Source: Leptospiraceae bacterium
GTDB lineage: Bacteria > Spirochaetota > Leptospiria > Leptospirales > Leptonemataceae
Direction: 5' to 3'
Assembly: GCA_026418015.1 (NCBI GenBank)
Contig: JAOACE010000023.1
Location: 1 to 43,676, forward strand
Length of the DNA: 43,676 nt
Positions 1 through 32,630 of the stretch are shown piece after piece (the first letter of the stretch is position 1; the number at the start of each line of letters is the position of its first letter). Under the pieces are notes generated by a model. That model was not told the origin of the DNA. It did not search any database and worked only from the letters and a program-made list of their open reading frames with translations. A program made the position numbers and the translations under genes.

Positions 1-94
1 TAAATTAACCGTCGCTGGGCTATGCACAGCGACAACTCGGGGTGGGTTGGGCGGGTTAAATTAACCGTCGCTGGGCTATGCACAGCGACAACTC
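1..94. repeat. GC-rich tandem repeat, 56-bp period, with hairpin and G-quadruplex motif
   Basis: A 38-bp block at 1-38 recurs identically at 57-94 (period 56), so the window starts inside or at the edge of an array. Each block has an inverted repeat, GTCGCTG...CAGCGAC (11-17/27-33 and 67-73/83-89), which can extend to ten pairs with one G-A mismatch and a TAT loop. Between the blocks is GGGGTGGGTTGGGCGGG (39-55), four G-runs with 1-2 base loops, the textbook intramolecular G-quadruplex pattern. It is followed by the palindrome GGTTAAATTAACC (54-66). The composition contrasts sharply with the surrounding AT-rich DNA. The second copy ends 15 bp before the etfA start. Function unknown. Confidence 0.85.
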
Positions 95-109
95 TAATGG
101 AGGAATAGA

Positions 110-1051
110 ATGTCAATATTAGCAATAGCAGAACTAAAAGATGGAAACTTAAAAAAAATATCCAAGGAACTTGCATCCGCTGGTAGAAAATTAGGCGGGC
201 CGGTAAATATTGTTTTATTCAATGGAAATGATAACCACGCAAATGAATTATTTAGCGCTGGTGCAGAAACAGTAATCAAAGTTGATGGGAAAGAATACTC
301 ACCAGAAGCGTGGGCAAATATGATATCTCAGTTAGCAAAAGAAAAAGGTGCAAAAGTGATATTAATTCCCCACTCTATCGAAGGAAAAGATTATGCTGGT
401 AGAGTAGCAATTCAGTTGGGGGCAAACCTAATTGCTGATGTCGTTTCTATACAAGGTGATAGTAATAGTGTTCAAGTGAAAAAACCTATATATTCCGGTA
501 AAGCTTATGCAAACATCAAAGTAAGTGCACCAGTAGTAATTACTATAAGACCAAACTCTCAAGAAGTACTAGAAAATTATCAAAGTCCTAAGAATATCGA
601 AACAGCTTCTCCAAGCGAAGGAACCGTTAAATCAAAGATTACGAATAAACAACAAGCGGAAGCTGGAAAGGTTCAACTTACAGAAGCATCTATAATTGTA
701 TCTGGTGGTAGAGGTATCAAAGGACCAGAGAATTGGCCTATACTCCAAGAATTAGCAGATACATTAGGAGCAGCATTAGGTGCGAGTAGAGCAGCTGTTG
801 ATGCAGGTTGGATTGATCATAGTCACCAAGTTGGTCAAACAGGTAAAACTGTTTCACCCAATTTATACATCGCATGCGGTATATCTGGTGCAATTCAACA
901 TTTAGCTGGTATGGGTTCTTCTAAAATTATTGTTGCTATCAACAAAGATCCCGATGCAAACATATTTAAAGTTGCAACTTATGGCGTTGTAGATGATCTC
1001 TTTAAAGTTGTACCAGCCATGACACAAGAAATTAAAAAATTATATAGCTAA
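110..1051 (+). CDS. etfA: Electron transfer flavoprotein alpha subunit
   Basis: EtfA pairs with EtfB, binds FAD, and passes electrons from acyl-CoA dehydrogenases to the quinone pool through ETF:quinone oxidoreductase. The 313-residue length is normal. The N-terminal half is the nucleotide-binding-like domain. The C-terminal FAD domain begins at about residue 197 (SGGRGI) and contains the family signature LYIACGISGAIQH followed by AINKDPDA (about 246-278). The start at 110 has a strong Shine-Dalgarno GGAGG at 99-103. etfB normally sits directly upstream and is presumably outside the window, but here the tandem repeat at 1-94 lies immediately before etfA. A hairpin terminator follows 8 bases after the stop. 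Confidence 0.96.
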   Translation: MSILAIAELKDGNLKKISKELASAGRKLGGPVNIVLFNGNDNHANELFSAGAETVIKVDGKEYSPEAWANMISQLAKEKGAKVILIPHSIEGKDYAGRVAIQLGANLIADVVSIQGDSNSVQVKKPIYSGKAYANIKVSAPVVITIRPNSQEVLENYQSPKNIETASPSEGTVKSKITNKQQAEAGKVQLTEASIIVSGGRGIKGPENWPILQELADTLGAALGASRAAVDAGWIDHSHQVGQTGKTVSPNLYIACGISGAIQHLAGMGSSKIIVAINKDPDANIFKVATYGVVDDLFKVVPAMTQEIKKLYS

Positions 1052-23188: not shown

Positions 23189-24282
23189 ACAACTTCGTAA
23201 CTATACTTGATTTTTTTTAAATTTCCAAAACGTTCTTCTGCAAGTAAAATTAATTTATCGATTAATTGAGTCTGGGTTAATCCTTCGTATTCCCACAGTT
23301 TTGGATACATACTAATGTTTGTAAAACCAGGCAATGTATTTACTTCGTTTACATAGATTTCTCCATTTTGGTAGAACATATCAACTCTTGCAAAACCTTC
23401 GCAATACAATGCTTTATAAGTTAAATAAGCAATATGCTTGATTTTCTGAACTTCCTCTGGTAATAAGTTTTGAGCTGGGATAAACAAACCTGCACCATCA
23501 GGATCTACATACTTTGCATCATAAGAATAAAATTCATGCTTGGGTTTGATTTCGCCCGGAATTGTTACCTCTGGATCTTCGTTTCCTAATACAGCACATT
23601 CAATTTCTCTTCCCTTAATTTCTTTTTCTACAAGAATTTTGGTATCAAACTCAAAAGATTTTTCTATGAATTGTTTTAACTCTTCGATGGTTTTTGCTTT
23701 ATAAACCCCCACAGAGGATCCTTGTCGCGCTGGTTTTATAAAAAGAGGCAATTGGAATTTCTTTACAATTTCTTCGTATGGTATAGAAGATTTTTCGTGA
23801 ATCTGATAACTTACATAGGGTGTGATAGGTATTTGATTTGCTGTTAAGATTTGCTTCATCGCTTCTTTATCCATACACAAGGCAGAAGCTAATACATCGC
23901 AACCTACAAAAGGAATTTGAGTTAATTTTAAGAGTCCCTGCAAGGATCCATCTTCGCCAAAAGTACCATGTGTTATCGGAAAAAATATATCGACACTAAT
24001 AACATGCATCTCTTGATTTTCCCAGTAAACAAAGGGACTTTTATCATCGATTTGAAAGTACAACAAATGTTTTTTGTGTTGTTCGATTTCTTTTAAGTTC
24101 TCTGGAAAATTTTTCGAATCTTCGATGTAATAAAATTTTCCTTCTTTCGATACATAAATGTTTAGAACCTGGTATTTTTCTTTATCGATAGCGCGATAAA
24201 TATTTTTTGCCGAAAGAATCGAAATTTCGTGTTCTGTGGAACGACCACCAAAGATCAAAGCGACTTTCTTTTTTGAGTTCAT
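23185..24282 (-). CDS. ddl: D-alanine--D-alanine ligase
   Basis: A 365-residue ATP-grasp ligase making the D-Ala-D-Ala dipeptide for peptidoglycan. Motifs: GGRSTEHEISILSAKN (12-27), THGTFGEDGSLQG, the ATP-binding QGSSVGV, ECAVLGN, FYSYDAKYVDPDGA, and the C-terminal magnesium and substrate loop YVNEVNTLPGFTNISMYP. The Tyr in the FYSYDAKY loop fits D-Ala-D-Ala rather than D-Ala-D-Lac ligases, which usually have Phe there. It starts 3 bases after meaB and overlaps galK by 4 bases. Finding it inside an acyl-CoA and galactose operon, away from mur or fts genes, is unusual. Confidence 0.95.
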   Translation of the reverse strand: MNSKKKVALIFGGRSTEHEISILSAKNIYRAIDKEKYQVLNIYVSKEGKFYYIEDSKNFPENLKEIEQHKKHLLYFQIDDKSPFVYWENQEMHVISVDIFFPITHGTFGEDGSLQGLLKLTQIPFVGCDVLASALCMDKEAMKQILTANQIPITPYVSYQIHEKSSIPYEEIVKKFQLPLFIKPARQGSSVGVYKAKTIEELKQFIEKSFEFDTKILVEKEIKGREIECAVLGNEDPEVTIPGEIKPKHEFYSYDAKYVDPDGAGLFIPAQNLLPEEVQKIKHIAYLTYKALYCEGFARVDMFYQNGEIYVNEVNTLPGFTNISMYPKLWEYEGLTQTQLIDKLILLAEERFGNLKKIKYSYEVV

Positions 24283-32063: not shown

Positions 32064-32630
32064 TCACTTATTTTTTAATTCTGCTTGTATTTGTTGGTTA
32101 GATTCTAATATTTTATTTAGCAAATCCATTTGTTTATAATTAAAATAAGTTAATAATCCAAAAAGTAGACTCATAAAAAATGCCATTACCCATTGCAAAA
32201 AATTAATCCTTGCATTCATATCTTCGAAACGTTTATCTACGTGATGCAATAAATCATTAAATCGTTTTTCTGTAAATTGTATTAAATCATTAAATCGTTT
32301 TTCTATATACTGCATTAATTCATTAGATCTTTTCTCTGTATAGTACATAAAATCACTGAATCGCTTATCCGTAGATTGCATTAAATCATTAGATCGTTTC
32401 TCTGTAAATTGTATTAAATCATTAAATCGCTTATCCATCATTTTAAAGCCTTCTCGCATCTCGATAATCAGCTCTCTAATTTCTGGCCTTGTTACAAAAT
32501 TTTGATGTTCTTCCACTATATCTTCGAAAACTTCCTCTAATTCTTTTGCTGCAAAATCGTCTTTATTTTCTCTAACATACATCAAAAATTTTTTGATTTT
32601 ATCCAAACGAAATTCTGCGCTCTTTGGCAT
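32064..32630 (-). CDS. Hendecad-repeat coiled-coil protein with C-terminal membrane anchor
   Basis: A protein of about 188 residues. After a helical N-terminal part (MPKSAEFRLDKIKKF...) it has seven consecutive 11-residue units of the form KRFNDLIQFTE, encoded by 33-bp units from about 32218 to 32448. A membrane helix follows (FLQWVMAFFMSLLFGLLTYF), then a short polar tail. Right-handed coiled coils with hendecad periodicity and a terminal anchor occur in DUF1640/CCDC90-like proteins and in the Bdr proteins of Borrelia; homology to either is not shown. An ATG at 32675 would add 15 residues, but a TTGACA lies within that stretch exactly 35 nt before the ATG at 32630, so I prefer the shorter form. 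Confidence 0.8.
   Translation of the reverse strand: MPKSAEFRLDKIKKFLMYVRENKDDFAAKELEEVFEDIVEEHQNFVTRPEIRELIIEMREGFKMMDKRFNDLIQFTEKRSNDLMQSTDKRFSDFMYYTEKRSNELMQYIEKRFNDLIQFTEKRFNDLLHHVDKRFEDMNARINFLQWVMAFFMSLLFGLLTYFNYKQMDLLNKILESNQQIQAELKNK
32218..32448 (-). repeat. Seven 33-bp tandem repeats inside the coiled-coil gene
   Basis: Units start at 32218, 32251, 32284, 32317, 32350, 32383 and 32416 on the plus strand, most beginning AAATCATTAAATCG. Units 32251, 32284 and 32383 are closest to one another. Each encodes 11 residues, so gain or loss of units keeps the frame. Confidence 0.88.

What the first reader, a model, noticed from the sequence alone, without database searches (positions are those of the whole stretch)
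1..94. GC-rich tandem repeat with G-quadruplex, palindrome and hairpin directly before etfA
A 56-bp-period unit, in two visible copies at the window edge, combines a perfect hairpin (GTCGCTG/CAGCGAC), a palindrome (GGTTAAATTAACC) and GGGGTGGGTTGGGCGGG. In an AT-rich genome this is a strong outlier. The identical copies imply recent expansion or selection. It sits where an etfB-etfA junction or the etfA promoter would be expected. The window beginning at a repeat boundary hints that the array is longer and may have broken the assembly.
Basis: seen in the sequence. Interest (0 to 1): 0.58.

Follow-up and report, generated by a model that had tools for sequence, protein, structure and literature searches.

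The report
Spreading hairpin arrays before bacterial genes
The repeat at the window edge belongs to a family of small GC-rich hairpins, alternating with runs of G, that this bacterium and one close relative carry directly in front of the ribosome-binding sites of important genes, probably to tune how strongly those genes are translated.

Summary
The repeat is real. Window 1-94 holds two hairpins (11-33, 67-89) in a 56-bp register with one G-tract between them (39-55), ending 9 nt before the etfA Shine-Dalgarno (SD) sequence. The window is a whole contig. Contig C22 of the same genome ends in the same units directly after etfB, so an etfB-array-etfA junction broke the assembly. In three congeners that junction is only 13-26 nt. 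Covariance-model searches find the family in two of four genomes of the genus: at least 7 units here and at least 74 in congener G003, in tandem arrays with 49-69 bp spacing. The stems co-vary. All 21 clusters lie on the sense strand of the next gene. In 19 of 21 the last hairpin ends 8-9 nt before the SD and 18-22 nt before ATG. Targets include etfA, recA, rplJ, acsA, ppdK, cbb3 oxidase genes and hsp20. There is no Rfam match, no Y1 transposase, and nothing credible outside the genus. Best reading: a dispersing 5'-leader module of G-tract plus hairpin plus SD that acts on the mRNA, most likely raising or setting translation, as a published synthetic G-quadruplex/hairpin leader does in E. coli. 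Location, covariation and recent spread are shown; the effect on translation is inferred.

The parts
1..10 (+). Linker TAAATTAACC: 3' tail of a unit cut by the contig edge
   Evidence: Identical to 57-66; window = contig C9 from base 1
11..33 (+). Hairpin 1: 7-bp stem GTCGCTG/CAGCGAC, loop GGCTATGCA
   Evidence: covariance model hit, 56.6 bits
39..55 (+). G-tract GGGGTGGGTTGGGCGGG: four G-runs, predicted quadruplex-former
   Evidence: Sequence; G4 pattern and G4Hunter 1.09 for its spacer; in the G4-aware MFE
54..66 (.). Palindrome GGTTAAATTAACC: incidental, not kept in other units
67..89 (+). Hairpin 2, the SD-proximal (terminal) unit
   Evidence: R2 62.2 bits
90..98 (+). Linker AACTCTAAT between hairpin and SD; in 19 of 21 clusters the SD begins 8-9 nt after the hairpin
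99..103 (+). Shine-Dalgarno sequence GGAGG of etfA
   Evidence: Sequence
110..1051 (+). etfA, electron transfer flavoprotein alpha subunit (313 aa)
   Evidence: found in 4 of 4 genomes of the genus

Best explanation
This is one copy of a dispersed 5'-leader module: a G-tract, a 7-bp GC-rich hairpin, an 8-9 nt linker, then the gene's own SD and start codon. It works as mRNA. Shown: its family, strand, fixed distance to the SD, co-varying stems, recent arrival at etfA, and presence at recA and one lipoprotein gene in two species. Inferred: the G-tract (as an RNA quadruplex) and the hairpin form a bulky block just upstream of the ribosome-binding site. This keeps the site clear of upstream structure and biases a bound 30S toward the start codon, so the downstream gene is translated more, and more independently of its upstream neighbour. 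Units multiply in tandem, the SD-proximal copy is kept intact, and older copies pushed upstream decay. How units are copied to new genes is unknown; recombination or template switching at SD-like G-rich stretches is the simplest idea.
For: Covariance model R1: 7 strong units in this genome and 40 matches in congener G003. R2: 74 in G003 and 7 here at E<=0.1 (only 150 candidates per genome were scored, so lower bounds). Covariation, 72 distinct units: 96.8% of stem cells paired against 82.0% shuffled, 79 two-sided changes against 23.7, 0 of 500 shuffles as high; likewise on the 25-unit alignment made by MAFFT, not fitted to the model. 21 of 21 clusters are sense to the next gene; in 19 of 21 the SD begins 8-9 nt and the ATG 18-22 nt after the last hairpin. 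The farthest units are more defective (permutation p 0.0017) and the terminal unit less so (p 0.047) across 16 arrays. etfB-etfA is 20, 13 and 26 nt long in G003, G001 and G002. recA and the lipoprotein gene carry it in both species. ccoP: an array in G003; in this genome a G-rich stretch plus a hairpin of different sequence at the same spot (-13.2 kcal/mol). Precedent: an RNA G4 in the 5'UTR raises translation in E. coli and a hairpin with it raises it further, with the barrier model proposed (PMC11087576, abstract and passages). There the G4 lay 46 bp before the SD; here the etfA tract ends 43 nt before it.
Against: No expression data exist for these organisms in what I could search. In the cited work the hairpin lay upstream of the G4, hairpins alone did not help, two hairpins reached only the level of a single G4, and a G4 20 bp from the start codon reduced translation. 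Here a hairpin lies between G-tract and SD, one copy (DUF2147 gene) has no G-tract, and at the DJ-1 gene the G-tract lies directly before the SD region. Only 14 of 67 distinct spacers have four runs of GGG (41 of 67 have four runs of GG). Predicted SD openness is only moderate (mean 0.57 in 22 leaders, no control). The G.U versus A.C asymmetry expected of sense RNA is weak: 17 against 6 cells (p 0.035), 11 against 6 when counted once per locus. Two of four congeners do without it.
Confidence: 0.5

Rival explanations
1. A selfish miniature repeat (like BOX, REP or yeast mitochondrial GC clusters) spreads at DNA level. It survives mainly where it does little harm, just upstream of SDs, and the hairpin is kept because transposition needs it, not because the host does.
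For: Lineage-specific insertion at etfBA; long exact stretches shared between unrelated genes: 61 nt etfB/DJ-1, 58 nt acsA/acidic ORF, 56 nt ccoN/ppdK; absent from G001 and G002.
Against: No insertion on the antisense strand or away from an SD among 21 clusters. No Y1 transposase in 4 of 4 genomes while 5 of 14 controls gave matches. The terminal copy is the best kept. Shared positions in two species (recA, lipoprotein, ccoP) suggest retention.
Confidence: 0.25
2. A regulated RNA element: a protein or small molecule binds the hairpin loop (GGCTNTGCA or GGTTTACT) and switches translation of an energy and acyl-CoA regulon; tandem copies raise affinity.
For: Two well-kept loop types while stems vary. 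Many targets fit one metabolism: etfA, AMP-forming acyl-CoA ligase, acsA, CoA transferase, cbb3 oxidase, PPDK, DctP.
Against: Targets also include recA, rplJ, hsp20, a TetR gene and unknowns. The recA copy in this genome and the ccoP hairpin have other loops. No Rfam match. No candidate binder could be sought.
Confidence: 0.15
3. A 5' mRNA stabiliser: hairpin and G4 arrays block 5'-dependent decay and prolong the life of strongly expressed mRNAs.
For: Position in leaders, stable hairpins (-10 to -15 kcal/mol), several housekeeping targets.
Against: No RNase J (TIGR00649) match in 4 of 4 genomes although 13 of 14 controls gave matches; the etfA and ccoP copies sit inside operons; in the E. coli precedent mRNA lifetime did not change.
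Confidence: 0.1

Closest known systems
Synthetic RNA G-quadruplex plus hairpin leaders that raise translation (PMC11087576; abstract and passages read)
   Same: Sense-strand G-tract tens of nt before the SD, with a GC hairpin in the same leader; a C-rich orientation is harmful there and was not seen here.
   Different: Designed constructs with the hairpin upstream of the G4; here natural, tandem, hairpin between G-tract and SD, and spreading through a genome.
Pneumococcal BOX elements (PMC3049150; passages read)
   Same: Short dispersed repeats with a variable number of tandem stem-loop modules in transcribed leaders; reported to alter downstream expression.
   Different: No boxA/boxC-like ends seen; here only one orientation and a fixed distance to the SD.
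Yeast mitochondrial GC clusters (PMC4478555; abstract, introduction and passages read)
   Same: GC-rich palindromes in an A+T-rich genome, stems under constraint, proliferating; tandem arrays named in a cited title.
   Different: Not anchored to an SD; no alternating G-tract described in what I read.
REP/RAYT and other palindromic repeats (recalled; review PMC2229807, passages read)
   Same: Small dispersed hairpins, some active at mRNA level.
   Different: No Y1 transposase in the genus sample; strict sense-strand SD-proximal placement.

Membership tests
REP elements mobilised by RAYT (Y1 transposase) | RAYT/Y1_Tnp gene in the genome | tested here: not met
   PF01797: 0 of 4 genomes, controls ring in 5 of 14
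BOX-type / MITE element | Terminal inverted repeats or box A/C-like ends around the tandem modules, target-site duplication | tested here: inconclusive
   Array ends read by eye show no shared end module; the etfBA filled and empty sites are too diverged to show a duplication
BOX-type / MITE element | Inserts in both orientations relative to genes | tested here: not met
   21 of 21 clusters sense
Known structured RNA or riboswitch in Rfam 15 | Match at gathering score | tested here: not met
   Only tRNAs in 12 sources; permissive scans of one array and of window 1-130 gave chance hits only
Intrinsic terminator | U-run after the hairpin | tested here: not met
   Sequences after the terminal hairpins, read, are A-rich linkers, G-tracts and SDs, no U-runs
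G4 + hairpin translation enhancer (works like) | Sense G-tract upstream of the SD | tested here: met
   67 distinct spacers: 14 with four GGG runs, 41 with four GG runs; etfA tract 39-55
G4 + hairpin translation enhancer (works like) | RNA G4 forms and raises translation | not testable with these tools
   Prediction only: G4 in the MFE of 14 of 22 leaders

The most novel reading that the evidence does not exclude
A bacterial genus has evolved a self-spreading translation-enhancer cassette: alternating RNA G-quadruplexes and co-varying hairpins that copy themselves to the Shine-Dalgarno sequences of chosen genes, with tandem copy number as a tunable dial on protein output.
Probability: 0.3. Interest if true: 0.82.

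Novelty: new variant of a known kind. Interest (0 to 1): 0.6.

Why it matters
If true, it is a natural counterpart of a G4-plus-hairpin leader known so far (to the extent searched) from constructs, and dozens of copies with different unit numbers in front of known genes would let the barrier model of translation initiation be tested by comparison. It also shows a small repeat whose spread is tied to Shine-Dalgarno sequences, which would link selfish DNA to operon-internal control: the etfA copy may uncouple etfA from etfB output.

Tried and rejected
Assembly or adapter artefact: rejected, because mid-contig copies with different, co-varying stems exist in two genomes. The C22 end is still ambiguous: its last 61 nt equal the copy before the DJ-1 gene on C26, so up to that much of C22 could be mis-extended; the unit count in the etfBA gap is unknown.

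Spread beyond the genus: R1 over 61 genomes gave weak matches (E 0.003 to 0.96) in 13 genomes outside the genus; seven of these loci read (L027-L032, L041) show no G-tract/SD setting. R2 over 22 genomes of the family: only G000 and G003. A 17-mer scan of genome contigs gave 13 loci, which I took as chance and did not read. The exact 23-mer gave 0 in viral contigs; two looser patterns gave 4 and 5 viral loci, none with complementary arms.

Dropped before counting: weak R2 matches C3:450864 and C8:87474 (G003), C16:76225 (own) and C9:57394 (G001), with E 0.27-0.95, and an R1 match C26:236366 (own, E 0.01, inside coding-like sequence), were read and left out of the 21 clusters. The list used is the 83 matches without L099 and with the own recA unit added; own recA was found by position (R1 E 3.3) and is not among the 21. 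The G003 cluster before an IS110-like gene (L052) is not independent: its upstream 0.9 kb is 92% identical to that of ppdK. A first regex-based unit count had a loop pattern that excluded most units and was discarded.

A general habit of hairpins before SDs: not seen. Strong hairpins occur in 4 of 57, 4 of 76, 2 of 36 and 4 of 42 sampled leaders of G000, G003, G001 and G002, against 6/171, 8/228, 2/108 and 3/126 shuffles (my own crude gene caller). Integron attC and CRISPR were considered from recalled features and set aside: no cassette-like alternation of unit and gene, and the spacers are G-rich relatives of each other. RNase J road-block: no RNase J match.

Full report
WHAT IS IN THE WINDOW. 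Bases 1-38 and 57-94 are identical, giving a 56-bp register with two copies of GTCGCTG-GGCTATGCA-CAGCGAC (11-33, 67-89) and one G-tract GGGGTGGGTTGGGCGGG (39-55). After the second hairpin come AACTCTAAT, the SD GGAGG (99-103) and ATG at 110. The gene is etfA. The hairpin is not expected by chance (0 in 100 shuffles; z -4.45 as RNA). Tandem Repeats Finder did not list it at its default score, probably because under two units are present.

THE ARRAY BROKE THE ASSEMBLY. The window is contig C9 from base 1, in a 2.9-Mb genome of 28 contigs. Contig C22 begins (reverse strand) with two more units, 47 nt after the stop codon of etfB. In three congeners etfB and etfA are separated by 20 nt (G003), 13 nt (G001) and 26 nt (G002), without any unit. 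So C22 and C9 very probably face each other across one array that arrived in this lineage. Its length is unknown, and the last 61 nt of C22 equal a copy on C26, so a mis-extension there is possible.

A FAMILY IN TWO SPECIES. A covariance model of the hairpin (R1) finds 7 strong units here and, among 61 genomes, 40 matches in congener G003 and none at E<=1 in congeners G001 and G002. A wider model (R2) finds 74 in G003 and 7 here at E<=0.1 among 22 genomes of the family; only 150 candidates per genome were scored, so these are lower bounds. In the fetched loci R2 finds 83 matches at E<=0.05. Units lie 49-69 bp apart in arrays of up to 8 detected units.

THE STEM CO-VARIES. Stems include GTCGCTG/CAGCGAC, GACGCTG/CAGCGTC, GTTGCTG/CAGCAAC, GTCGTCG/CGACGAC, GTCGGCG/CGCCGAC and GCCGTTG/CAACGGC. 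On 25 units aligned by MAFFT, 99.4% of cells pair against 84.2% shuffled, with 26 two-sided changes against 6.0. On 72 distinct units aligned to the model, the figures are 96.8% against 82.0% and 79 against 23.7; in both cases 0 of 500 shuffles were as high. Four of seven pairs change on both sides. The loop is mostly GGCTNTGCA or GGTTTACT. Paralogous units share history, so cells are not independent events.

PLACEMENT. I counted 21 clusters: 17 in G003 and 4 here. All 21 are sense to the next gene. In 19 of 21 the SD begins 8-9 nt and the ATG 18-22 nt after the last hairpin (start codons were also read). The two exceptions, dctP and the DJ-1 gene, have a further G-tract between hairpin and SD. 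In G003 the genes are an acyl-CoA ligase, two cbb3 oxidase subunits, recA, a lipoprotein, rplJ, acsA, an acidic ORF with a frameshift, a 101-aa unknown, ppdK, dctP, an Mpo1-like gene, a tetR, hsp20, a CoA transferase, a DUF3332 gene and one start followed by an IS110-like gene; here etfA, DJ-1/PfpI, the same lipoprotein, and a DUF2147 gene. The IS110 and lipoprotein labels are my reading of the sequence; no family search supports them. The IS110-linked array is not independent of ppdK: 92% identity over 0.9 kb upstream.

INHERITANCE AND TURNOVER. recA: G003 has an array and this genome one diverged unit (stem still fully paired with one wobble, -10.1 kcal/mol), while G001 and G002 have neither. 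The lipoprotein gene has units in both G003 and this genome. ccoP: G003 has an array; this genome has a G-rich stretch plus a hairpin of other sequence (GGCAATGTG-TACT-CACATTGCC) at the same spot; G001 has a G-rich stretch alone; G002 has neither. rplJ: G003 has an array; this genome has a short unrelated hairpin; the other two have almost no leader. Long identical stretches between unrelated genes (61, 58, 56 nt) show recent copying. In 16 arrays of two or more units the unit farthest from the SD is more defective than the rest (permutation p 0.0017) and the SD-proximal one less so (p 0.047). Old copies therefore decay upstream while the copy beside the SD is kept or renewed.

G-TRACTS. Of 67 distinct spacers and upstream flanks, 14 hold four runs of GGG and 41 four runs of GG. 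G4-aware folding puts a G4 into the MFE of 14 of 22 leaders. In sampled DNA, non-coding GGG-rich motifs lay within 60 nt upstream of a sense start in 3 of 5 cases (G000, 444 kb), 5 of 6 (G003, 400 kb), 0 of 3 (G001, 400 kb) and 1 of 3 (G002, 280 kb) (crude gene calls). One other G000 case looks like 5S rRNA by recall. Two of the G003 cases and one of the G000 cases lack a family hairpin recognised by the models, so the G-tract may be the older part.

MECHANISM. No U-run follows the hairpins, so they are not terminators. The fixed distance to the SD, single strand, co-varying stem and retained terminal copy point to the mRNA. G.U exceeds A.C among imperfect pairs, 17 to 6 (p 0.035), but only 11 to 6 per locus, so this strand test is weak. 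A published study found that RNA G4s in the 5'UTR raise translation in vitro and in E. coli, that a hairpin with the G4 raises it further up to 12-fold, and that ribosome affinity, site accessibility and mRNA lifetime do not explain it; a physical-barrier model was proposed. It placed the G4 46 bp before the SD and notes that a G4 20 bp from the start codon was inhibitory in earlier work (PMC11087576; abstract and passages). Here the etfA G-tract ends 43 nt before the SD. The analogy is close but not exact: their hairpin was upstream of the G4, hairpins alone did nothing, and two hairpins only matched one G4. I therefore hold the translation effect at about 0.5.

ALTERNATIVES. A selfish repeat is the main rival: turnover is clear, but insertions against the gene or away from an SD were not found, and Y1 transposases are absent (0 of 4 genomes). 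A ligand- or protein-controlled leader is possible because loops are kept and many targets concern acyl-CoA and respiration, but recA, rplJ and hsp20 do not fit one pathway. mRNA stabilisation by blocking RNase J is unlikely, since none was found in 4 of 4 genomes.

NOVELTY. No Rfam family, no credible relative outside the genus in the collections searched, and no paper describing it in the searches, which cover open-licence papers only. Dispersed stem-loop repeats are a known kind (BOX elements, PMC3049150; yeast mitochondrial GC clusters, PMC4478555). The SD-anchored alternation of G-tract and hairpin is the new variant.

Noticed in passing
L052:2900-3420 and L058:1-1132 (G003): Two 92%-identical copies of the ppdK upstream region with arrays; in one an IS110-like gene follows shortly after the start codon.
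   Followed up: partly
L125 about 1410-1500 (own genome, ccoP): Diverged leader element, G-rich stretch plus a 9-bp hairpin of unrelated sequence, missed by the covariance models; more such elements may exist.
   Followed up: partly
L126 about 1440-1500 (G001, ccoP); own genome C17 about 24,202-24,212 on the minus strand (L141): G-rich tracts 20-60 nt before start codons without a family hairpin, possibly the ancestral form.
   Followed up: no
window 32245-32438: Tandem repeat of 33/66-bp period, about 76-78% alike, not examined.
   Followed up: no
L057:3185-3600 (G003): Very acidic D/E-rich ORF downstream of an array, with an apparent frameshift near its start.
   Followed up: no
own genome C22:114-160: A 47-nt A+T-rich stretch with a 16-nt palindrome (TTAATTTTAAAATTAA) between etfB and the array, absent from congeners; it may have come with the array or hold a promoter.
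   Followed up: no
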